Source of the DNA: Pseudomonadota bacterium
GTDB taxonomy: Bacteria; Pseudomonadota; Gammaproteobacteria; CALCKW01
Direction: 5' to 3'
Length of the DNA: 59,059 nt
NCBI GenBank assembly: GCA_039196715.1
Contig: JBCCUP010000026.1
Coordinates: 1-59,059, forward strand
In this document: positions 2,807-47,216 of the stretch, piece by piece
Layout of the letters: each line of letters starts with the position of its first letter
Numbering within the stretch: the first letter of the stretch is position 1
Notes under the pieces: model-generated
What the model was told of the DNA's origin: nothing
The model's input: only the letters and a program-made list of their open reading frames with translations
The model's database searches: none
Made by a program: the position numbers and the translations under genes

Positions 2807-3859
2807 GTGTCAGACACAACCGCACCGGACGGTGAATCCCTGGACCTCGACGCCCTGTCGGCGTATGTCGCGCGCGAGGTGCCCTCGGTGGGGCGTGTCC
2901 ACGCGATCGAAAAATTCCAGGGCGGACAGTCCAACCCCACCTTTCGACTTGAGACCGACGGTGGTGCGGTGGTGCTTCGGGCCAAGCCGCCCGGTGCTCT
3001 GCTGAAATCGGCTCATCAGGTCGACCGGGAGCACCGCGTGATGTCAGCCCTGCGGGCGACCGAGGTGCCGGTGCCGGAGATGCTGCACCTGTCGGGCGAC
3101 GGTGACGGGTCGCCTATCGGGCGGCAGTTTTTTCTGATGCGCTTCGTCGACGGGGTGATCCACTGGGATCCGTCGCTGGAGACCCTCGATCCAGACGGCC
3201 GTCGGGCCGTCACCGACAGCATGAACCGCACGCTCGCAGCCTTGCACCGTGTCGACCCCGAGGCGGTTGGCCTCGGCGACTTTGGCCGCCCCGGAAACTA
3301 CTTTGCGCGTCAGCTGAGCCGCTGGACCAAACAGTACCGCGCCTCGGAGACCGACCCGATTGCGGCCATGGACCGGCTGATAGGCTGGTTGGAGGCCGGC
3401 CTTCCGGACGACGACGGCAGCGTGTCATTGGTGCACGGCGACTTCCGCCTCGACAACATGATGTTCGACACCAAAACGCATGACGTGGTGGCCGTGCTCG
3501 ACTGGGAACTGTCGACGCTAGGCCACCCGGTTGCCGATCTCGCCTACCAGTGCATGCAGTGGCGGTTGCCGGCGGACAGCGCCTTTCGGGGGCTGGGTGG
3601 CCTCGATCGGGCCGGACTTGGCCTGCCGGTCGAAGCGGACTACGTGGACCGCTACTGTGAACGCACCGGCCGGGAGGCCATTGCGAACTGGAACTACCAC
3701 CTCGCGTTCAATTTCTTCAGACTGGGTGCCATATTGCAGGGCGTGTACAAGCGTGCCCTGGACGGAAACGCGTCGAACCCGGAGCGGGGCAGACGCATGG
3801 GTGAGGCGGTCCCGTTGCTCGCGGCCGTCGCGCTGGACACCATCGAGACACAACCATGA
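2807..3859 (+). CDS. APH-family phosphotransferase (ACAD10/11-type kinase-like)
   Basis: 350 residues from a GTG at 2807, with GAGGAG about ten bases upstream. The protein has the aminoglycoside/choline kinase fold: a GGQSNPTF nucleotide-loop region near residue 40, the catalytic loop HGDFRLDN and the metal-binding segment VLDWELSTLGHP. The spacing and the WELSTLG sequence are typical of the branch that accompanies acyl-CoA dehydrogenases (ACAD10/11-like kinases of hydroxy-acyl compounds) rather than drug-resistance enzymes. Its stop overlaps the ATG of the next gene (ATGA), so the two are translationally coupled. The substrate cannot be told from sequence. Confidence 0.85.
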   Translation: MSDTTAPDGESLDLDALSAYVAREVPSVGRVHAIEKFQGGQSNPTFRLETDGGAVVLRAKPPGALLKSAHQVDREHRVMSALRATEVPVPEMLHLSGDGDGSPIGRQFFLMRFVDGVIHWDPSLETLDPDGRRAVTDSMNRTLAALHRVDPEAVGLGDFGRPGNYFARQLSRWTKQYRASETDPIAAMDRLIGWLEAGLPDDDGSVSLVHGDFRLDNMMFDTKTHDVVAVLDWELSTLGHPVADLAYQCMQWRLPADSAFRGLGGLDRAGLGLPVEADYVDRYCERTGREAIANWNYHLAFNFFRLGAILQGVYKRALDGNASNPERGRRMGEAVPLLAAVALDTIETQP

Positions 3860-4785
3860 CAGAGACCTTTGTACCCCGGACCGAAGAGGGCGCCTTCGTG
3901 CGCGCGGTGTCCGAATTTCGCCACTGGGTCACCGCAGACGGCGCAGCCGGGCCGAGCGGCGAGGGCGGATTCGAGGCGGCATCCGGCCGCTACCACCTGT
4001 ACGTCTCCTACGCGTGCCCCTGGGCCAACCGCACGTTGATCATGCGCACCTTGAAGGGCTTGGAGAGCCACATCGATGTCAGTGTCGTGCACCCGCTGAT
4101 GGGGCCCGAGAGCTGGCATTTCGACGACAGTTACCCGGGGGCGACCGTCGAACCGCTGTTTGGCGCGCACTTGATGGCCGAGGTGTACCGCCGTGCCAAC
4201 GCGCATTTCGACGGTGTGGTCACGGTGCCTGCGCTCTGGGACCGCGAGCGCGCAACCCTGGTGAGCAACGAGTCCTCTGAAATCATCCGGATGTTCAACC
4301 GGGCGTTTGACGGCATCACCGGCAACCGGGACGACTACTATCCCGACGCGCTCCGTGCGGAGATCGACCGGTGGAACGAACGCATCTACCACACGGTGAA
4401 CAACGGCGTGTACCGCGCGGGCTTCGCCACCACGCAGACGGCCTATGCGAACGCCGTTGGCGAGCTGTTTGATACCCTCGATGTCCTCGAAGCCCACCTC
4501 GCCGAGCGCAGCTTTCTGGTGGGCGACTCGCTCACCGAGGCAGACATCCGGCTGTTTCCGACCTTGATCCGCTTCGACGCGGTCTACGTCACGCATTTCA
4601 AGTGCAACGTGCGCCGCCTGGTGGACTTCCCGGCACTGCAGGCCTACACCGAGCGCCTCTACGCGCTGCCCGGCGTGGCCGAGACGGTGCGCTTCGACCA
4701 CATCAAGGACCACTACTTTCAGAGTCACCGGAGCATCAACCCCACCGGCATCGTGCCAGTCGGCCCCGAGTTGGCATTTCGGTGA
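3856..4785 (+). CDS. yqjG: Glutathionyl-hydroquinone reductase (YqjG/ECM4-type GST)
   Basis: 309 residues. The N-terminal thioredoxin-like domain carries the CPWA motif with catalytic Cys54, and the C-terminal helical GST domain contains LTEADIRLFPTLIRFD, a hallmark of the Xi-class GSTs that reduce glutathionyl-hydroquinones with glutathione. Length matches the family (about 310-330). It is cytosolic. It overlaps the APH-like kinase gene by four bases (ATGA), so the two are probably one operon, which would be an unusual pairing. No terminator is obvious behind it; the leucine leader promoter follows about 90 bases on. Confidence 0.9.
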   Translation: MTETFVPRTEEGAFVRAVSEFRHWVTADGAAGPSGEGGFEAASGRYHLYVSYACPWANRTLIMRTLKGLESHIDVSVVHPLMGPESWHFDDSYPGATVEPLFGAHLMAEVYRRANAHFDGVVTVPALWDRERATLVSNESSEIIRMFNRAFDGITGNRDDYYPDALRAEIDRWNERIYHTVNNGVYRAGFATTQTAYANAVGELFDTLDVLEAHLAERSFLVGDSLTEADIRLFPTLIRFDAVYVTHFKCNVRRLVDFPALQAYTERLYALPGVAETVRFDHIKDHYFQSHRSINPTGIVPVGPELAFR

Positions 4786-4877
4786 ACCGGGCTGCGCGCC
4801 GCGGTTTTCTGCGCGTGGCTGCTGATTCACCCCGGTGACAGTGTCCGGGCCGGGGGCGAATTTCCCGGTGCTGCAGG

Positions 4878-4906
4878 TTGCCTTTTGGCCCGACTCTCGC
4901 TACCTT
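4878..4906 (+). promoter_or_regulatory. Sigma-70-like promoter of the leucine leader
   Basis: TTGCCT (4878-4883) and TACCTT (4901-4906) are separated by 17 bases. The predicted start of transcription at about 4912-4914 falls on the ATG of the leader peptide, which implies a leaderless leader mRNA. Confidence 0.5.
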
Positions 4907-4912
4907 GGGGAT

Positions 4913-6881
<1,969 letters not shown>

Positions 6882-6891
6882 GCAACCGCAC

Positions 6892-6918
6892 ACCGGGGCT
6901 GCACGCGGCAGCCCCGGT
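6892..6918 (+). terminator. Hairpin behind leuA
   Basis: An 11-bp perfect stem, ACCGGGGCTGC (6892-6902) with GCAGCCCCGGT (6908-6918), loop of five. It starts 11 bases after the leuA stop. A T-run is absent, so termination may need Rho or the hairpin may protect the 3' end. Confidence 0.55.
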
Positions 6919-7017
6919 CTCGGGCGGGGGCAATCACCGGGGCGCGGCAGGGCGCCCCAGCTCTTTAGGTCTGATTCCTGCAGTACCGGTGGTGATCCCC
7001 CATGTGCGTGAGCCACC

Positions 7018-9954
7018 GTGAAACCTGCCACCCCGTTTTTGCGCCGAACCCTCGGTTCGACTGCCCTTTGTGCCCTGCTGATTGGCTGTGGGGGTGGTGG
7101 CGGAGGCGGTGTGCAGTCCGACAGCGCGGCGCTGCTGAGCGGTGTGTTGCTCGACAGCGCGGTCTCTGGCGTGCATTACGATGGCGCGCTGACCGGCCTC
7201 GACGGGCGCTACTTCTACCTCGCCGGTGATGTGCTGCGGTTTCACCTCGGTGGTGTCGAGCTCGGTTCCGTGACAGGGCGAGCACAGACGACACCGCACG
7301 ACCTCGCGGGCAGTCACGACGATTACAAGCACGACCGCGTGATCCGGACCGCGCGTTTGTTGCAATCGCTCGACAGCAACGGCGTGCTGTCGGACGGCAT
7401 TCAGATCTCCGACAGCGTGCGCAACGCGGCGGCGCGCGCGACACTGGACTGGACCCTGGCCGGTACCGCGTTCGAACGGGCGCTGTCCGACCTCGTCTTT
7501 ACCCTGACCGCCGGGCAGGGCGCCGTGGTTTCGGCCGAAGACGCACAGACCCACCTGCACAACACCCTCGCCAACAGCGTCGAATCGTGCGCGGGTGTGC
7601 CGCGTAACGCGGCACACTTCGCCATCGGCAACCCGCGGTGCCTCGACCTCGCTCGGATGGCGGCCTGGCTCGAGGACGTCAAACCGCGCGAACTCGCGCT
7701 CGACGCGGCGATTGACAGTCTGGCGGGCGGCGGCGTAGCACGCACCGCGCTCGACCAACTCGTGGCCCTGGTGCCGACCGACACCACCGGTGTGTCAGAG
7801 AGCGACCTGCACGCGCTGGCCGACTGGGTCGCCGACCGGGTCGCCGGCAACAACAGCGGCTTGCGCACACAGTTGGCCCGTTTCCTTGCGGTGCGTTACA
7901 CCGCCCGCGTCTTCGGTCCGCAGCCGTGCGACGAGCCCTGTACCGAGCCGACGGCGGACGCCGTCACCGGGGCCTTGATCGGCGCCCAGTCGGCGACCTC
8001 GGCCGCGCAGTGGCAGCGCGCCGTCAACGAAGCCCGGATCGCGCGTGGCGTCGTCGAGTCCTGGTTGTCGTACGGGTTCAATCGGGCCGCATTGCTGGCC
8101 AACGCCGGTGTGGATTCACTGCGCGATCGCACGCCGTTGCTCGACGCGGCGGCGGCGGCGCTCGGGTTTGCACGTGCAGATTACCGGGTCGATGTGGTCG
8201 ACGGTTGGGCGGCGCAGCAACTGGCGTTGAACGACATGGCATTGGCGAGCCGGGGTGCCTTCGATTCCGCGTTGCTGGCCGACCCGACGGTATCGGGTGT
8301 GCGGGTGTCTGACGTGAGCCACGACAACCTGGTCGTCGGCGGCACGGCGCGCTTTCTGGTCCGCGGCCAGCAACTTAGTGACAGCCTGGTGTTGCGCCTC
8401 AGTGGCTGTGCTGCCGCGCTGACACCGGGTGGCACGAGCGAAGCGCGCGCGTTCACCTGCACCGTGGGTGGAACCAGCGGCTGGCGCACGCTCTCAGTCA
8501 GTGATGGGCTGACGCAGACGGAATTGTACAGCCTCGCTGTCTTTGTACCTGCGACGGCGGGAGACAGTGGCTCGGGCGGCGGTGCGCCGCCCAGTGATGA
8601 CGCTGGAACCCCCTCACTACCGAGTGATGATGGCGGCGGGGCCACGACCGACCCTGCAGGTCTGGTGGTCAGCAGCATTGCGCCGGCGCGTGCCCAAATC
8701 GGCGAGCAAACCGCCTTTGTTTTGACTGGGCAGGGCTTCTCACAATCGACCGGTGTGAGCATTGTTGAGTGCAGCGACCTCGTGGTGAACTCGCGCACTG
8801 CGACGCGGGTTGGCTTCCGTTGCACGCCGTCTGGTCAGACCGGAAACCGCGTGGTAACGGTGACAGAAGGCACGCAGACCAATACCCAGTTGCGGGTTCG
8901 GTACGATGCAGCACCTCCAACCGTGTCACAGGTAACGCCCAGCCAAGCCTCGGTCGGTGATGCTGTGGCATTTACCGTAACCGGTACAAACCTCGACGAC
9001 GGCGTGTCTTTCTCAGTAGAAGACTGTGGCTCTGCGACCCCGTTGAGCGGTGGTTCGGCGGTCGAAAGGCGTTATCGCTGCGCGTTTGACCGTGCTGGTG
9101 AAAAAGCGGGCACCATCACACACGGCGGGGAGGTGATTCACCGTTTTGACGTGACGGTCGATGCTGCTAGCGACCCTGTGGTCACTTCCGTGTCTCCGAC
9201 CGATGCGGCGCTTAGTGAGCCGCTCACACTCGTGGTCACAGGTCGCGATTTGCCCGACTCTCTCGCTGTCTCACTGACTGGCTGTTCAAACCTGACCGCG
9301 AGTTCGCGCGGTGCGAGCGAACAGACTTTCACGTGCCAGCCCTCACAATCCGGCAACCTGGTCGGTACGGTCAGCAACGGCAGTGACACGCTGAGCCGCT
9401 TCACCGTGGACGTGGTGGACGACCGGGTCTCGATCAGCAGTGTTCGTCCGGGTGCAACGCGCCTTGGCGCGATCACCACGTTCACTGTGGCTGGAGAGGC
9501 GTTACCGAGCACACTCACGCTCGACATTGCGAACTGCGAAGACATGCAACCGCTCGGTGGTGGCACGACCCGCCGTCAGTTCCGGTGCACCCCAACCGGG
9601 ACGCTCGGCACGCGCGACGTGGGCGTGTTGTTCGACGCGGCCAGCACGACACCGCTCTACACCCACAAGCTCACTGTGGCAGGCGACGGCCCGCTCGTGA
9701 CCAACGTGTCGCCGACCCAAGCGACCGTTGGTCGGCTGACCACCTTCACGGTGGTGGGGCAGTCGTTGACCGGTCCGCTGTCTCTCAGAATGGCAGGCTG
9801 CTCGGTGTCGACCGTAGGCACCTCGAGTGCCTCGGTACACCGCTTTCGGTGCTCGGTGACGGGCGACGCCGGGACACGCGAGGCCACCGTGGTCGACAGC
9901 CGGTCTGGCGCCGTGCTGTACGCCTTCGACGTCAGGATCAACGCCGGGACCTGA
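7018..9954 (+). CDS. Large surface lipoprotein with six Cys-paired IPT-like repeats
   Basis: 978 residues from a GTG at 7018. A lipobox LIGC followed by a run of Gly marks a lipoprotein anchored after the first 20 residues or so. Residues 30-400 form a region I do not recognise (LDGRYFYLAGDVLRFHLGG is a piece common at the start of secreted proteins of this kind). From about residue 424 six repeats of 80-90 residues follow, each with the pattern V..VSPT.A..G...TF.V.G..L...L.L.L.GC and a second Cys about 25 residues later; they resemble IPT/TIG Ig folds with one disulfide each. A Gly/Ser/Asp linker (about 520-545) divides repeat 1 from repeats 2-6. Likely a cell-surface adhesin or binding protein. 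Single gene, no partner. Confidence 0.75.
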   Translation: MKPATPFLRRTLGSTALCALLIGCGGGGGGGVQSDSAALLSGVLLDSAVSGVHYDGALTGLDGRYFYLAGDVLRFHLGGVELGSVTGRAQTTPHDLAGSHDDYKHDRVIRTARLLQSLDSNGVLSDGIQISDSVRNAAARATLDWTLAGTAFERALSDLVFTLTAGQGAVVSAEDAQTHLHNTLANSVESCAGVPRNAAHFAIGNPRCLDLARMAAWLEDVKPRELALDAAIDSLAGGGVARTALDQLVALVPTDTTGVSESDLHALADWVADRVAGNNSGLRTQLARFLAVRYTARVFGPQPCDEPCTEPTADAVTGALIGAQSATSAAQWQRAVNEARIARGVVESWLSYGFNRAALLANAGVDSLRDRTPLLDAAAAALGFARADYRVDVVDGWAAQQLALNDMALASRGAFDSALLADPTVSGVRVSDVSHDNLVVGGTARFLVRGQQLSDSLVLRLSGCAAALTPGGTSEARAFTCTVGGTSGWRTLSVSDGLTQTELYSLAVFVPATAGDSGSGGGAPPSDDAGTPSLPSDDGGGATTDPAGLVVSSIAPARAQIGEQTAFVLTGQGFSQSTGVSIVECSDLVVNSRTATRVGFRCTPSGQTGNRVVTVTEGTQTNTQLRVRYDAAPPTVSQVTPSQASVGDAVAFTVTGTNLDDGVSFSVEDCGSATPLSGGSAVERRYRCAFDRAGEKAGTITHGGEVIHRFDVTVDAASDPVVTSVSPTDAALSEPLTLVVTGRDLPDSLAVSLTGCSNLTASSRGASEQTFTCQPSQSGNLVGTVSNGSDTLSRFTVDVVDDRVSISSVRPGATRLGAITTFTVAGEALPSTLTLDIANCEDMQPLGGGTTRRQFRCTPTGTLGTRDVGVLFDAASTTPLYTHKLTVAGDGPLVTNVSPTQATVGRLTTFTVVGQSLTGPLSLRMAGCSVSTVGTSSASVHRFRCSVTGDAGTREATVVDSRSGAVLYAFDVRINAGT

Positions 9955-35873: not shown

Positions 35874-37561
<1,688 letters not shown>

Positions 37562-37571
37562 CGCGGCCGCC

Positions 37572-39746
37572 TCATCGCGCGATCAGGCGCGGCAGGGGCG
37601 CAAGGCTGCAGCGGCCGCAGCGTTTGTGGTAGTGCGCCACGACCTCGTCGGCTTCGGCTTGCCGGCGTGCAGTGTTGATCGGGTCATCGAGACCGAGTCG
37701 ATGCCGAAGCACGCGGCGAAACAGGTAGCTGTCGCGGTAGCCTAGAAAGGTGCTCTCGTTGCGGCCGCGATCGGGGCAACTGTCGCGGCTGAACAGGGTC
37801 ACGTGGCCAAAACTCGGCACCTCACCGCGCGCGACGCGCTCGCCGAGCTTGCTGTCGTCCAGCAAGGTGTCCAGCACGCGGGCCTTCAGCGCATCCTGGC
37901 CGAGTTCGGGGTCGGTGAAGCAGGCGATGAGTTCGCTTTCCGCTTCGGGTGTGAGCCCGTACTCGCTCGCGAGAATCGCAAGGTTCTGCGCCATGTACCG
38001 ATCGGCGGCGTCAAGTGTCTCGTCCACCAGCGCAACCATTCCTTCCATCATGCTCTGCGGCAGGCCGAGTTGATCGCGGTACCCGGGCTCGTGCCGGTGT
38101 TGCACGATTTCGCCGGTGAGTTTTTCGATCAACGGTCGGATGATCGGACCGCGTACACGCTCCGCCCAGTAGATTCGGATGCCGCTGTGGCGCCACCAGC
38201 CCTCGAGGCTGTCGGGGTCGCGAACGCTCTCGTTGAAAGTGGTCATGGTGTCGACCAACTTGGTGATGATGCCGGCCACCGTGTACGGCGTGCGCGCGTC
38301 CGTCGGCCGGATGCGCATGGTGGTGTAGCGTCCGACATCGTAGGCTGCGCGCACCGTGCGCAGACCGGGTGATTCGAGCGTCTGGTGGGCCTTGAGCGTG
38401 CCCTGGGTTGCATTGCGCGCGTCGGTGACTTCGCCGACCATGGCGGCAATCGGTGCGCCGAAGCGCTTGCGCAACAAACGCAGCGAGTGGTAGTACCCGG
38501 CCACGGCGCTCGAGCCGTCCTCGACCACGTCGTGCATCATGGCCGCCGCGGCGGTGCTGACGTCCAGGTTTTCACCAAACTCGCGCCAGGCCGCGTCGGC
38601 GAGGCAGAAGGCGTGCGAGACCATGGTCACGCGCGACTTGCGCCGGCACTTGTCGAGGTGACGCGTCACCTCGAGTGCGGCAAGGTGCAGCGTGTTGATG
38701 TCGTTGGGCCACGCCGCGGCATCGAAGTACTCCATCAGCGGCAGGTTGTTGTGGACTTCGTGCACCGCACGGCCGCGTCGGCCAACCAGCCGGTGCCGCT
38801 TACGCGCGTCGCGCAGCACGTCGTGCACGGCCTGCAGCAGCGTGTGTTCGAGCGGCTCGCGCAGCGCGTGGTGGTCGACGCCCGGCAGGTCAAAGGCCGC
38901 GCGCGCCATGTTGTAGTCGATCTCGAGCTGGGTGCGCTCGGGGAACGCGCCCCGTGTGTCGATCCCGGCCTCCTGCAGTTCACGCCGTTTGTCGGCGCAG
39001 AGGGTGGCGATGATCTCCTCGCCCGCGGCCCGTGCAGAGAGGCGCAGGCGCGCTGCGACCACCGCCGCGATCACGTTGGCATAGCGTGGCGACACCGACA
39101 GATGCGAGGTTTCGCCGAGCTTCCAGGCGTCGAGAAAATCCGCGTAGTGTTGGCGAATGTTGCGCACGTGTACCGCCACCTGACGGCCGAATTCCCGCTC
39201 GATGTAGGCGTTGTCGACGACCGGCGCGAGGTCGCGGTCGAGGGTGAGCAGGCGGTCGCGCTTGTCCAGGCAGCGGTGAATCAGGGTGGCGACCACGAGG
39301 TTGGCGCTGATGCGGCGATCGCCGCCCCCCTGTCGGCCGAACCGGCGAACGCCCTGCATGATCACGCCGGCGAGGACCACGGCATTGATACTGGGTTCGA
39401 GCTTCGGCAGCCGGTTGGTGTTGATCAGCTGCTCCCAGCCGGGGTGGGCTGGATCGATGTGGTCAAGGCGCCGGTCGAAGGGGTCCAGCGGCGTCCCCGG
39501 GTAGAACACGCTCGCGAGAATCTCGCGGCCGCGCACGGTGTCCCGCGTCGCTGCTGCGATCTCCCTCACGGGGATGGCGGTTTCGATTTCGGCGTTGCGC
39601 CAGGCGGCCGAGACCGGCCCGATCAGTGCCCGTTCGTCGTCGAGGGTGCTCGCGATCAGGCGGTAGGCCTTGATGGTCTTGCCGAGTTTCCCGGGCTCGG
39701 GCCGCGGTGTCGCGGAAACAGCGGTGTGGCCGTTTCGCGCGACCAC
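37572..39746 (-). CDS. 724-residue protein with RelA/SpoT-type HD hydrolase core, otherwise unknown
   Basis: From a GTG at 39746. Residues 371-505 read like the HD hydrolase of RelA/SpoT proteins: His378 (VSHAF), His405-Asp406 with Glu409-Asp410 (MMHDVVEDG), RFGAPIAAMVGEVTDA, and Asp499 in ITKLVDT. The usual Asn four residues after that Asp is missing; Asn505 is six away. No synthetase, TGS or ACT domain exists. The 370-residue N-terminal part and 220-residue C-terminal part are mostly helical, Arg-rich, and unfamiliar; the C-terminus ends with CGRC. No TM. It follows the XRE-shikimate kinase regulator by 72 bases on the same strand. A nucleotide (alarmone) hydrolase is inferred from the core only. 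Confidence 0.75.
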   Translation of the reverse strand: MVARNGHTAVSATPRPEPGKLGKTIKAYRLIASTLDDERALIGPVSAAWRNAEIETAIPVREIAAATRDTVRGREILASVFYPGTPLDPFDRRLDHIDPAHPGWEQLINTNRLPKLEPSINAVVLAGVIMQGVRRFGRQGGGDRRISANLVVATLIHRCLDKRDRLLTLDRDLAPVVDNAYIEREFGRQVAVHVRNIRQHYADFLDAWKLGETSHLSVSPRYANVIAAVVAARLRLSARAAGEEIIATLCADKRRELQEAGIDTRGAFPERTQLEIDYNMARAAFDLPGVDHHALREPLEHTLLQAVHDVLRDARKRHRLVGRRGRAVHEVHNNLPLMEYFDAAAWPNDINTLHLAALEVTRHLDKCRRKSRVTMVSHAFCLADAAWREFGENLDVSTAAAAMMHDVVEDGSSAVAGYYHSLRLLRKRFGAPIAAMVGEVTDARNATQGTLKAHQTLESPGLRTVRAAYDVGRYTTMRIRPTDARTPYTVAGIITKLVDTMTTFNESVRDPDSLEGWWRHSGIRIYWAERVRGPIIRPLIEKLTGEIVQHRHEPGYRDQLGLPQSMMEGMVALVDETLDAADRYMAQNLAILASEYGLTPEAESELIACFTDPELGQDALKARVLDTLLDDSKLGERVARGEVPSFGHVTLFSRDSCPDRGRNESTFLGYRDSYLFRRVLRHRLGLDDPINTARRQAEADEVVAHYHKRCGRCSLAPLPRLIAR

Positions 39747-39818
39747 GTCAGGCCCGCCGCAGTCCGGCCGGGGAGACGCTGTTGATCGGCACCGGGTGCG
39801 TGGGCGACAGCACGGTGG

Positions 39819-40673
39819 TCAGCCGGACTTGCCGTCAATGATGGCGCACAGCCGTTCCACCGCAGTCTCGGCGGTGATCGTGCTGGTGTCGATCTGGTGG
39901 TCGGCCTGGCTGTAGAAGGTTTCGCGTTCCTGCAACATGAGTTTGAGGTCATCCAGCGACTGCTGGTGGCGATCAAACGGGCGCATGTCGCCCTGCTGCA
40001 TGACGCGGTTCATGTGCTGCTCGGGCTGAGCCTGTACCCACACCAGCGTGCAGCGTTCGCGCAACAGGTTGTAGGTCGGGGCTTCGGCGACGAGGCTGCC
40101 GCCGGTCTCGATGATGCAGCGGGTCGTGCCTTCGACGATGTCGGTCAGCGCCGCGCCCTCCCAGCGGCGGTAGGCGTTCTGGCCGCCGAGGTCCATGATC
40201 TCCGCCAGCGACATCCCGGCGAGTTCGACAATGCGATCGCTGATGCGGATGAAGGGCATGTCCAGCGACTCGGCCGCACCGCGGCCAATGGTCGACTTGC
40301 CTGCGCCGCGCATGCCGAGCAGGGCAAAGCGGTTGGCGGTTTCGCGGCGGGCGGTGCCGACCACCGTTTGCACATGCGCGAGCAGCTTGTGCTTCTGATC
40401 GTCGTCCATACGGTTGATCAGAGCGTGCAGCTCGGCGTCTTCCGGGCCGTGTCGGTCGAGGTCGATGAGGTCCAGCAGGTTCACGTCCAGCGCTCGGGAG
40501 ATCTTGTAGAGCATCGCGAACGACAGGTTTGCCTGGCCGCTCTCGACCTGGGCGAGGTAGCGCTCGGATATCTCGGAATGGTTGGACAGGTGTTTGCGAG
40601 ACACGCCGCGCTGGGCGCGGAGTGATCGGACGCGGCGGCCGATTTCGGCCAGCCAGTTGTTCATTGCTTCCAT
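39819..40673 (-). CDS. XRE regulator fused to a shikimate kinase-like domain (BzdR/BoxR type)
   Basis: 284 residues from ATG 40673 (ATG 40664 is also possible). Residues 11-65 are an XRE HTH (GVSRKHLSNHSEISERYLAQVESG). From residue 113 a shikimate kinase-like domain starts, with P-loop GMRGAGKST (120-128), ISDRIVELAGMSLAEI and IETGGSLV. BzdR and BoxR share this architecture and bind benzoyl-CoA with the kinase-like part. Here no benzoate gene is near; the only downstream partner is the HD protein, so the ligand may differ. Confidence 0.9.
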   Translation of the reverse strand: MEAMNNWLAEIGRRVRSLRAQRGVSRKHLSNHSEISERYLAQVESGQANLSFAMLYKISRALDVNLLDLIDLDRHGPEDAELHALINRMDDDQKHKLLAHVQTVVGTARRETANRFALLGMRGAGKSTIGRGAAESLDMPFIRISDRIVELAGMSLAEIMDLGGQNAYRRWEGAALTDIVEGTTRCIIETGGSLVAEAPTYNLLRERCTLVWVQAQPEQHMNRVMQQGDMRPFDRHQQSLDDLKLMLQERETFYSQADHQIDTSTITAETAVERLCAIIDGKSG

Positions 40674-44340: not shown

Positions 44341-44419
44341 AGCACGGCGTGGCAGGCAAAACACGGGTAACATGGCCGGTTACGTGCGCCCGCCTCCCAA
44401 CACAGACAGTGAAGAGAAC

Positions 44420-45385
44420 ATGATCAATCAAACGCAGTCGACCTCCGGTTTGCCCGACACCACGGTGGCGGTTCAGGACGTCTTCGGCTTCGAGAGCAGC
44501 GTCTCGGTACCGGCGTACAGCGCGGCAGGCGAACACGTGCCCGAAGTCGACCCGGACTACCTGTTTGACCCCACCACGACGCGCGCGATTCTCGCGGGGT
44601 TCTCGCACAACCGCCGGGTGCTGGTGTCGGGCTTGCATGGTACGGGCAAGTCGACGCACATCGAGCAGGTCGCAGCGCGGCTGAATTGGCCCTGTTTGCG
44701 GATCAACCTCGACAGCCACGTCAGCCGACTGGACCTGATCGGCAAGGATGCCATCGTCCTGCGCGACGGCGTCCAGGTCACGGAATTCCAGGACGGTATC
44801 CTGCCCTGGGCCATCCAGAACAACGTGGCGCTGGTGTTCGACGAGTACGACGCCGGCCGACCCGACGTCATGTTCGTGATTCAACGGGTCCTTGAGACCG
44901 CGGGTCGACTGACCCTGCTCGACCAGAGCCGTGTGCTGCACCCGCACCCGGGGTTCCGATTGTTTGCCACCGCCAACACCGTCGGCCTCGGCGACGCGAC
45001 CGGCCTCTACCACGGCACGCAGCCGCTCAACCAGGCGCAACTCGACCGTTGGTCGATCGCAACCACCCTGAACTACCTGCCGCACGACCAGGAATGCGGC
45101 ATCGTGCTGGCGAAGGCCCAGGCCTTGCGCGACGACGAGGGCCAGGCGACCGTCGACCGCATGGTGCGCCTCGCAGACCTCTCGCGCGGTGCGTTCCGGG
45201 CTGGCGACCTCTCGACCGTCATGTCGCCCCGCACGGTCATCACCTGGACCGAGAACCTCGCGATCTTCCAGGACGTGGCAGAGGCGTTCCGCTTCACCTT
45301 TCTCAACAAGTGCGACCCGCTCGAGCGGCCGCTGGTTGCCGAGCTCTACCAGCGCGCGTTCGGTGTCGAGCTGAACATCGGCTAG
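44420..45385 (+). CDS. cobS: CobS-like AAA+ ATPase subunit of aerobic cobaltochelatase
   Basis: 321 residues from the ATG at 44420. The N-terminal [15 protein letters not shown] and [19 protein letters not shown] are typical of CobS; Walker A is GLHGTGKST (71-79), Walker [12 protein letters not shown] (about 136-146), and [21 protein letters not shown] is a signature of the MoxR-like chelatase ATPases. It powers cobalt insertion into hydrogenobyrinate a,c-diamide with CobN and CobT. cobT follows after four bases; cobN is not in the window. Confidence 0.93.
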
Positions 45386-45389
45386 GCGG

Positions 45390-47216
45390 ATGGCGGTCCC
45401 ACCGAGAGCCCGCGGCCACAACCGGCGACGCGCACAGGCCATCGGGCCGCGCGAGGCGGCCCAGCAGGCGCAGGCCGGTTGCGTTCGCGCGCTCGCCGAC
45501 GCCGAGTGCCTTTCGGTGCAGTTCGGCAACAACACGCCGTCCATCGATGGCGACACGGTCACGCTGCCGTCGGCTGGCGCCGACATGAGCAGCGAACAAC
45601 GCACGCTGTGGCGCGGTCAGGCCGACGCGCTGGCACTCGAGCGTCGCTACCACGACGCTGTTCAGCACCGCCAGCTGGCGCCCGCGAGCGGCGCTGCGCG
45701 GGCGGTGTTCGATCGCCTGGAGGCGGTGCGCCTCGAGGCGCGGGGCTGCCGCGAGTTTGCCGGTGTGGGTGACAACCTCGACGCCGCGCTGTCAGATCGG
45801 TTTCGCTACCTGCTCGACAACCCCGACAGCGAATACTCCCCGCTGGCCGAGGCGCTGGCCCTGCACACGCGCGAGCAGCTCACCGGCCGGCCGACACCGG
45901 ACACGGCCGACACCGTCATATCGAAGTACCGCAGCTGGCTGGATCAGCACATCGACCTCGACTACAACCGCCTGGGTCAGTGCCTCGACGACCAGGCCCG
46001 GTTCGCCGCCGTGGTGTCCGACATGCTCGCCGGATTGAACCTCGGGGACGGGGAAGCCGAAGCGACCGGGTCGGCTTCGGCCGAACCGCCACCTGACGAG
46101 GACGCGAGTGAGGACGGGCCGCAGGACGGTGCCGACGACGCACCTGACGACGACAGCGGCGGCGATACCGACGACGCCGAGAGCGACGCGGATGCCGACA
46201 GCTCGGACGAGTTGGCGGACCCCGGCGACGAAGACGCGGACGGCGAAGCGATAAACGCACCCGAAAAAGCCGGCAAGGCGCGCAAACCGGACGCTTACAG
46301 CGTCTACGCCACCGAGTTCGACGAGGTCATTGCTGCGGAAAAGCTCGCGCTTGGCTATGAACTGGACGAGCTGCGTTCGCAACTCGACCGGCTGATCGGA
46401 GACCAACAAGTGGCAATCGGCCGCGTGGCAAACCGGCTGCAGCGGCGTTTGCTGGCGCAGCAGGAACACGCCTGGCAGGTCGACCTCGAGGAGGGCGTGC
46501 TCAACACGGCGCGGCTCACTCGGGTGATCACGCGGCCGGAACGGCCGCTTGCGTTCAAACAGGCGCACGTGGTGCCGTACCGCGACACGGTCGTTACACT
46601 GCTGCTCGACAACTCCGGGTCGATGCGCGGTCGGCCGATCGCGATGGCAGCCTCGTGCGCGGACATCCTCGCGCGCACCCTGGAGCGTTGCGGCGTGCGC
46701 ACCGAGGTGCTCGGGTTCACCACCCGCGCCTGGAAGGGCGGGCAGAGCCGCGAACGCTGGCAGAAAGACGGCTCGCCGCGCAACCCCGGTCGCCTGAACG
46801 ACCTGCGACACATCATCTACAAGACGGCCGACGCGCCGTGGCGGCGCTCGCGCCGCAACCTCGGCCTGATGCTGCAAAAGGGGCTGCTCAAGGAGAACAT
46901 CGACGGCGAGGCGCTGACCTGGGCGCACAACCGGCTTCTGGCCCGGCCCGAACGCCGGCGGATTCTCATGATGATCTCGGACGGTGCACCGATTGACGAC
47001 AGCACGCTCTCGGTCAACGCGGGCAAATACCTCGATCAGCACCTGCGCGAAGTCATCGGCCGGATCGAGCAGCAGTCACCGATCGAGTTGGTGGCGATCG
47101 GCATCGGCCACGATGTGACGCAGTACTACCAACGCGCCGTGACCATCGTCAATGTCGACGAGCTGGCGGATGTCATGACCCAGGAACTGGCCTCGCTGTT
47201 CGACGCGCCCATGTGA
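45390..47216 (+). CDS. cobT: CobT-like VWA subunit of aerobic cobaltochelatase
   Basis: 608 residues. An N-terminal helical part (1-215) leads into an acidic linker (about 216-290, almost all Asp/Glu/Ser/Gly), then a conserved CobT region and a VWA domain with [13 protein letters not shown] near residue 405 and [14 protein letters not shown] further on. The layout is that of CobT, the partner of CobS in the chelatase motor. Coupled to cobS (four-base gap). With the adenosyltransferase at 10041 it supports aerobic B12 synthesis, unless the pair serves another chelatase-like machine. Confidence 0.93.

What the first reader, a model, noticed from the sequence alone, without database searches (positions are those of the whole stretch)
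37572..40673. RelA/SpoT-like HD core in a 724-residue unknown protein paired with an XRE-shikimate kinase regulator
The sequence shows His378, His405-Asp406, Glu409-Asp410 and Asp499 in the order and spacing context of the alarmone-hydrolase HD domain, without any synthetase, TGS or ACT domain and with about 370 unknown residues in front. The gene before it encodes a DNA-binding domain fused to a nucleotide-binding kinase-like sensor of the BzdR/BoxR type, away from any benzoate genes. A ligand sensor that controls a nucleotide or alarmone hydrolase is an arrangement I do not know to be described.
Basis: partly seen in the sequence, partly recalled or inferred. Interest (0 to 1): 0.75.

Follow-up and report, generated by a model that had tools for sequence, protein, structure and literature searches.

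The report
Twin-HD protein related to alarmone hydrolases
One bacterial order carries, besides the usual RelA and SpoT, a third protein made of a dead and an apparently live copy of the domain that normally breaks down the starvation signal (p)ppGpp; in the window's genus it lies beside a regulator derived from a benzoate sensor.

Summary
In detail: GTG 39746-37572 (-) encodes 724 aa with R369-K370, H378, H405-D406, E409-D410, K496 and D499, invariant in 31/31 relatives; Pfam calls it HD_4, the RSH hydrolase domain. An XRE-shikimate-kinase gene lies 72 nt upstream on the same strand. The interpretation needs three corrections. (1) The "unknown" front is a second RSH-type HD fold without its metal ligands (profile E 3.5e-6, beyond 200 permutations; folded alone it matches small alarmone hydrolases at Z 13): a tandem pseudo-HD + HD. 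(2) The catalytic half is small-hydrolase-like, but two residues needed in SpoT are replaced in every member (Y51 to M375, N147 to T/S503), so (p)ppGpp hydrolysis is possible, not shown. (3) The regulator pairing is confined to the window's genus (4 of 4); the HD gene itself is near-universal (46/48 genomes) in a second order, in other contexts (nth, two-component genes, leuS), and RelA and SpoT are kept beside it. The regulator is a BoxR-clade paralogue away from box genes; a true boxR sits beside boxBC elsewhere in the same genome. Verdict: a new architectural variant of RSH-type HD hydrolases.

The parts
37572..39746 (-). 724-aa tandem-HD protein (pseudo-HD + conserved linker + SAH-like HD + helical tail)
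   Evidence: ORF; Pfam HD_4; 31 full-length homologues; AlphaFold model pLDDT 87.2, pTM 0.89
38757..39707 (-). residues 14-330: degenerate RSH-type HD domain (pseudo-HD); aligned metal-ligand positions are A122, H/Q157, variable 158, mostly G161, K162, A238
   Evidence: hhalign to RSH HD E 3.5e-6, none of 200 column permutations close; folded alone (residues 14-342) pLDDT 87.9; VIA Z 13.2, rmsd 3.2, 170 of 175 residues of P. aeruginosa SAH 6yvc
38700..38921 (-). residues 276-349: linker between the two HD folds, the most conserved part between the two orders (62% identity; motif GRRG(R/K)AVHEVHxNLPxMEY)
   Evidence: region identities; invariant columns
37977..38714 (-). residues 345-590: SAH-like HD domain with complete metal and catalytic set
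   Evidence: VIA: 3nr1 MESH1 Z 12.6, rmsd 2.2, 169 of 178 residues; hhalign to RSH HD E 8.4e-12 and to SAHs E 3.4e-9
38613..38615 (-). H378 (metal ligand position, RSH H53)
   Evidence: 31/31 invariant
38517..38534 (-). H405-D406-V-V-E409-D410 (HDxxED)
   Evidence: 31/31 invariant for H, D, E, D
38250..38252 (-). D499 (RSH D144); T503 lies at the position of RSH N148
   Evidence: D499 31/31 invariant; position 503 is T or S in 31/31
37575..37976 (-). residues 591-724: helical C-terminal tail, least conserved, no assignment
39747..39818 (.). 72-nt spacer between the XRE-SK stop codon and the HD start codon; no terminator-like site found on that strand
39819..40673 (-). 284-aa XRE DNA-binding domain + shikimate-kinase-like domain, BoxR-clade paralogue
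   Evidence: NF006015 315 bits; 91% and 69% orthologues next to HD in two sister species; 40-44% to BoxR-type proteins elsewhere, most of them beside boxBC
37100..37561 (+). convergent flavodoxin/FMN-reductase-like protein (weak PF03358), kept beside HD in all four genus members

Best explanation
The 724-aa protein is a tandem-HD member of the RSH/HD_4 hydrolase superfamily. Its C-terminal HD, closest in fold to small alarmone hydrolases (SAH/MESH1), most likely removes phosphate or pyrophosphate from a 3'- or 2'-phosphorylated purine nucleotide, with Mn2+ held by H378, H405, D406 and D499 and water activation by E409-D410. The N-terminal HD has lost its metal ligands. It most likely acts as a non-catalytic regulatory or nucleotide-sensing module, by analogy with the pseudo-hydrolase domain of RelA, coupled to the active half through the very conserved GRRGxAVHEVHxNLPxMEY linker. 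It works alongside RelA and SpoT as a third, separately controlled enzyme. In the window's genus it is probably co-transcribed with an upstream BoxR-derived regulator, which would tie its expression to an unknown CoA-thioester- or nucleotide-like ligand. Shown: architecture (by profile and predicted fold), motif conservation, distribution, genus-level linkage. Inferred: catalysis, substrate class, sensing by the pseudo-HD, co-transcription.
For: HD_4 match and R, K, H, HD, ED, K, D invariant in 31/31. C-half profile to RSH HD E 8.4e-12. Model pLDDT 87 with MESH1/SAH as top VIA rows, Z 12.6, rmsd 2.2 over 169 residues. SAH-like EVTD and W..Y.WA..V motifs. N-half profile to RSH HD E 3.5e-6 against at best 0.0096 in 200 permutations. 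N-half folded alone has SAH and RSH HD domains in the top 18 rows, Z 13.2, rmsd 3.2, 170-177 residues; PDE rows follow only at Z 7.5. Metal positions lost in the N-half. Purifying selection on both halves. RelA and SpoT HD domains in all seven genomes tested. The RelA pseudo-HD acts as a regulatory switch (PMC8012599).
Against: SpoT Y51 and N147, whose substitution makes A. baumannii SpoT hydrolase-inactive (PMC9974481), are M and T/S here in 31/31. K158 and R161 of SpoT's basic half have no counterpart at the simple offset (read by eye). About 27 extra residues lie before D499, and model confidence is low at 411-416 and in parts of 440-490. Direct N-half to C-half comparison is not significant (E 0.12). 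Plain Foldseek gives no significant hit for either model. No ligand or activity data exist.
Confidence: 0.62

Rival explanations
1. It is a true (p)ppGpp or (p)ppApp hydrolase, a third alarmone enzyme that resets the stringent response beside SpoT.
For: All metal and catalytic residues plus the R44/K45 equivalents are kept. The closest folds are MESH1, SAHs and SpoT. In g272/g275 genomes the gene lies directly upstream of leuS-lptE-holA, a translation-linked context.
Against: Y51 to M and N147 to T/S in all members; SpoT mutants at those sites are inactive (PMC9974481). SpoT is already present. No small alarmone synthetase was found in G000.
Confidence: 0.3
2. It acts on another 2'/3'-phosphorylated nucleotide such as NADP(H), PAPS/PAP or a CoA-type 3'-phosphate; the altered substrate-side residues reflect that.
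For: SAH relatives are promiscuous: the Xanthomonas SAH hydrolyses NADPH (PMC9765508), and MESH1 is crystallised with NADPH and PAPS (entries 5vxa and 9chy). The two substrate-side residues are uniformly changed while the metal site is intact.
Against: No direct evidence for any of these substrates. MESH1 itself keeps the Tyr (alignment) and the Asn (own knowledge), so their loss does not point to these substrates in particular.
Confidence: 0.3
3. Both halves are non-catalytic; the protein is a scaffold or nucleotide-binding regulator of RelA/SpoT or other partners.
For: Two residues essential in SpoT are missing and the front half has already lost its metal site.
Against: Six metal/catalytic residues remain invariant in 31/31 across two orders; in RelA and in the front half the same positions decay.
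Confidence: 0.15
4. One reading: a dedicated two-gene system in which a BoxR-type ligand sensor controls an alarmone hydrolase.
For: Same order, strand and short spacer in the genus, kept although other neighbours change in G002. XRE-SK is under strong purifying selection (dN/dS 0.05; first 80 codons without an amino-acid change against G003).
Against: Pair absent in the second order, where the HD gene has at least three other contexts. A convergent flavodoxin-like gene is kept just as well, so synteny alone could explain it. No shared operator was recognised upstream.
Confidence: 0.3

Closest known systems
Small alarmone hydrolases (SAH: MESH1, Mesh1-L, PaSAH, RelH)
   Same: C-half fold (MESH1 Z 12.6, rmsd 2.2, 169 residues), HDxxED and D, EVTD motif, W..Y.WA..V helix; N-half fold also matches
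   Different: SAHs are single ~180-200 aa domains; here two HD folds in 724 aa, Y to M, N to T/S, ~27-residue insertion, extra linker and tail
Long RSH enzymes (Rel, RelA, SpoT)
   Same: RSH-type HD domain; RelA is the precedent for a degenerate HD kept for regulation
   Different: No SYNTH, TGS or ACT domain; the degenerate HD is paired with an active-looking HD, not with a synthetase
divSpo (unplaced hydrolase-only RSHs of Atkinson et al. 2011, PMC3153485)
   Same: Hydrolase-only and divergent; listed for gamma-proteobacteria among others
   Different: A word search of that paper found no tandem or two-HD architecture
BoxR/BzdR regulators (NF006015), for the neighbour gene
   Same: XRE + shikimate-kinase-like domain, Walker A kept; 40-44% to BoxR-type proteins that mostly sit beside boxBC
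   Different: No box genes nearby; only 35% to the genome's own boxR; ligand unknown

Membership tests
RSH-type HD hydrolase domain (HD_4 / RSH superfamily) | Profile match above curated cut-off | tested here: met
   PF13328 37.5 bits against 27.2; hhalign E 8.4e-12
RSH-type HD hydrolase domain (HD_4 / RSH superfamily) | Metal ligands H, HD, D and catalytic ED | tested here: met
   H378, H405, D406, E409, D410, D499 in 31/31
RSH-type HD hydrolase domain (HD_4 / RSH superfamily) | R44/K45 of the substrate loop | tested here: met
   R369, K370 in 31/31
(p)ppGpp hydrolase (active RSH/SAH) | Tyr of the PYxxH motif (SpoT Y51) | tested here: not met
   M375 in 31/31; Tyr in all 25 ungapped rows of the RSH set
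(p)ppGpp hydrolase (active RSH/SAH) | Asn four residues after the metal Asp (Rel N148 / SpoT N147) | tested here: not met
   T or S in 31/31; N in 24 of 29 rows of the RSH set, the same number that keep H77/D78
(p)ppGpp hydrolase (active RSH/SAH) | Mn2+-dependent hydrolysis of (p)ppGpp | not testable with these tools
   needs purified protein
Long RSH (Rel/RelA/SpoT) | SYNTH, TGS and ACT domains | tested here: not met
   no such Pfam match in any of 31 members; only a weak HD-region match to TIGR00691
Small alarmone hydrolase (SAH) | HD domain only, ~180-200 aa | tested here: not met
   724 aa with a second HD fold, linker and tail
Small alarmone hydrolase (SAH) | SAH/MESH1 fold | tested here: met
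   C-half: 3nr1 Z 12.6, rmsd 2.2, 169 aligned
BoxR/BzdR regulator (neighbour gene) | XRE + shikimate-kinase-like domain over curated cut-off | tested here: met
   NF006015 315 bits against 204
BoxR/BzdR regulator (neighbour gene) | Located with benzoyl-CoA pathway genes | tested here: not met
   no BoxB/BoxC/ligase in the window by tblastn; own boxR with boxBC lies at G000:C32
BoxR/BzdR regulator (neighbour gene) | Benzoyl-CoA as effector | not testable with these tools
   needs a binding assay

The most novel reading that the evidence does not exclude
A new type of RSH-superfamily enzyme in which a metal-free HD domain senses one nucleotide and gates a neighbouring HD hydrolase with shifted specificity, giving a whole bacterial order a third nucleotide-signal enzyme beside RelA and SpoT; in one genus its expression has been put under a repurposed benzoyl-CoA-type sensor.
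Probability: 0.25. Interest if true: 0.75.

Novelty: new variant of a known kind. Interest (0 to 1): 0.55.

Why it matters
A tandem HD architecture was not found in the RSH literature searched here. A near-universal, usually single-copy, strongly conserved protein with an intact metal site and consistently altered substrate residues, next to canonical RelA and SpoT, points to a nucleotide-signal branch that has not been assayed. It is directly testable with purified protein, and the dead front half would be a second example, after RelA, of a pseudo-HD kept for regulation.

Tried and rejected
Plain Foldseek against PDB and viral models gave nothing with E below 0.001 for the full model or the N-half; only the VIA second look and profile-profile comparison were informative. 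Direct N-half to C-half profile comparison is not significant (E 0.12), so origin by internal duplication is not claimed. Plasmids and viral contigs: no relatives. The genome-contig scan used genus-specific peptides (GRAVHEVH) and found only the three sister MAGs, so it is not a survey; distribution rests on sampled genomes. A shared operator upstream of XRE-SK was not recognisable by alignment of three species. Promoter/terminator scan uninformative. Defence role: PADLOC gives no match for the HD protein; its matches for the neighbour are generic helix-turn-helix hits. HD_4 multidomain proteins with another C-terminal part (L019-L021, L023, L035) were considered as relatives and set aside: different tail, and they keep the Tyr. 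The C-tail (591-712) has no profile similarity to RSH HD.

Full report
OBSERVATION. The HD protein matches Pfam HD_4 (PF13328, the RSH hydrolase domain) at residues 362-450, 37.5 bits over a cut-off of 27.2; the only other hit is a weak spoT_relA match. In 31 full-length homologues (39-79% identity to the window protein) R369, K370, H378, H405, D406, E409, D410, K496 and D499 are invariant.

DISTRIBUTION. Full-length homologues occur in all four genomes of the window's genus and in 46 of 48 genomes of a second gamma-proteobacterial order. The genus MAGs carry the title "uncultured Granulosicoccaceae bacterium". One member of the second order is a 7.78-Mb single contig that I take, from memory of its size, to be Granulosicoccus antarcticus (inference). 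A class sample (369 genomes) and a phylum sample (398 genomes), both drawn evenly, gave full-length matches only in these two groups. Plasmids and viral contigs have none. The protein looks like an order-level core gene, not a mobile one. RelA and SpoT HD domains are present beside it in six of the seven genomes with three HD_4 hits and in the seventh as two strong hits, and 12 of 12 genomes have at least two synthetase-domain proteins; G000 has exactly two, so no small alarmone synthetase was found there.

THE C-TERMINAL HD. A profile of residues 335-600 matches an RSH HD profile built from fetched loci at E 8.4e-12, with H, HDxxED and KLxD in register. AlphaFold2 on the 31-row alignment gives pLDDT 87.2 and pTM 0.89. 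The VIA second look puts small alarmone hydrolases on top: human MESH1 3nr1 Z 12.6, rmsd 2.2, 169 of 178 residues; other MESH1/SAH rows Z 11.3-12.5; SpoT 7qpr Z 10.3, rmsd 3.6, 183 residues. The sequence has the SAH-like EVTD where long RSHs read GVTK or GVSK, and a W..Y.WA..V helix. Against this, two substrate-side residues are changed in every member: SpoT Y51 is M375, and SpoT N147 (Rel N148) is T or S at 503. Substitution of either residue inactivates A. baumannii SpoT (PMC9974481), and both are kept in the active long RSHs and SAHs examined. I therefore place the domain in the RSH-type HD superfamily, but do not file the protein as a (p)ppGpp hydrolase, a SAH or a long RSH.

THE FRONT HALF. 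It is not unknown. The profile of residues 14-330 matches the RSH HD profile at E 3.5e-6 (score 47.2), while 200 column permutations reach at most 25.1 (E 0.0096) and the reversed profile 15.3. The register puts VATLIHRCLDK on AALxHDVxED, IEREFGRQVAVHV on xxxFGxxVxxxV, and RLRLSARAAG on IKLADRIHN. Predicted alone (pLDDT 87.9), it has SAH and RSH HD domains in the top 18 rows: PaSAH 6yvc Z 13.2, rmsd 3.2, 170 of 175 residues; C. glutamicum RelH 7qod Z 13.2, rmsd 3.2, 176 of 192. PDEs, which also belong to the HD superfamily, follow at Z 7.5. Helical folds can give middling Z by chance, but here rows, register and profile agree. The metal positions are gone: A122 for the first His (my reading of the alignment), H or Q or R at 157, variable at 158, mostly G at 161, K at 162, A238 for the Asp; R235, L236 and R239 are invariant. 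Direct comparison of the two halves is not significant (E 0.12), so I do not claim an internal duplication.

LINKER AND CONSTRAINT. Residues 276-349 are the most conserved stretch between the two orders (62% identity against 46% for the HD and 38% for the pseudo-HD), with the motif GRRG(R/K)AVHEVHxNLPxMEY. dN/dS against two sister species is 0.06-0.08 for the HD, 0.12-0.20 for the pseudo-HD, 0.09-0.11 for the linker and 0.23-0.27 for the tail (pairwise NG86, synonymous sites partly saturated). Both halves are therefore maintained.

THE REGULATOR. XRE-SK passes the curated BoxR/BzdR-type model. Its nearest sampled relatives outside the genus (40-44%) mostly lie next to boxB and boxC, and the window's own genome has a separate boxR beside boxBC and a benzoate-CoA ligase (35% identical to the window protein). 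The window protein is thus a BoxR-clade paralogue detached from box genes. Next to the HD gene it is found only in the window's genus: G000, G002, G003, and a fragment at the contig edge in G001. In the second order the HD gene lies by nth with or without a sigma54-type two-component pair, or directly upstream of leuS-lptE-holA (gene names by eye). The pairing is a real genus-level arrangement, not a defining part of the HD family.

MECHANISM. Shown: architecture by profile and predicted fold, motif, distribution, genus linkage. Inferred: the C-half is a Mn2+-dependent nucleotide phosphohydrolase; the front half is a non-catalytic regulatory module, for which the RelA pseudo-hydrolase switch is the known parallel (PMC8012599); the substrate is open among alarmones and other 2'/3'-phosphorylated purine nucleotides, since SAHs are promiscuous (PMC9765508); in this genus expression is tied to a BoxR-like sensor (BzdR binds benzoyl-CoA through its kinase-like domain without kinase activity, PMC3602430).

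VERDICT. New architectural variant of RSH-type HD hydrolases, interest 0.55.

Noticed in passing
window 38700-38921 (residues 276-349 of the HD protein): The linker between the HD folds is more conserved between orders than either HD domain; it carries an invariant basic and His-rich motif and may contribute to the active site.
   Followed up: partly
L130-L133, L137, L139: In genera g272/g275 the HD gene lies directly upstream of leuS-lptE-holA on the same strand (about 36 nt gap in L130).
   Followed up: partly
G388:C1:7034316-7034636: A third synthetase-domain protein (379-aa frame) in the 7.78-Mb Granulosicoccus-like genome, a candidate small alarmone synthetase.
   Followed up: no
L142 (G000:C32) 2984-9808: A genuine boxR beside boxB, boxC, a putative alpha/beta hydrolase and benzoate-CoA ligase in the window's own genome.
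   Followed up: yes
L019, L020, L021, L023, L035: Another multidomain HD_4 family with a C-terminal part that looks CBS-like by eye, in several gamma-proteobacterial families; not the family studied here.
   Followed up: no
window 44372-47216: CobS- and CobT-like cobaltochelatase genes side by side, next to a pyridoxal-dependent decarboxylase; not examined further.
   Followed up: no
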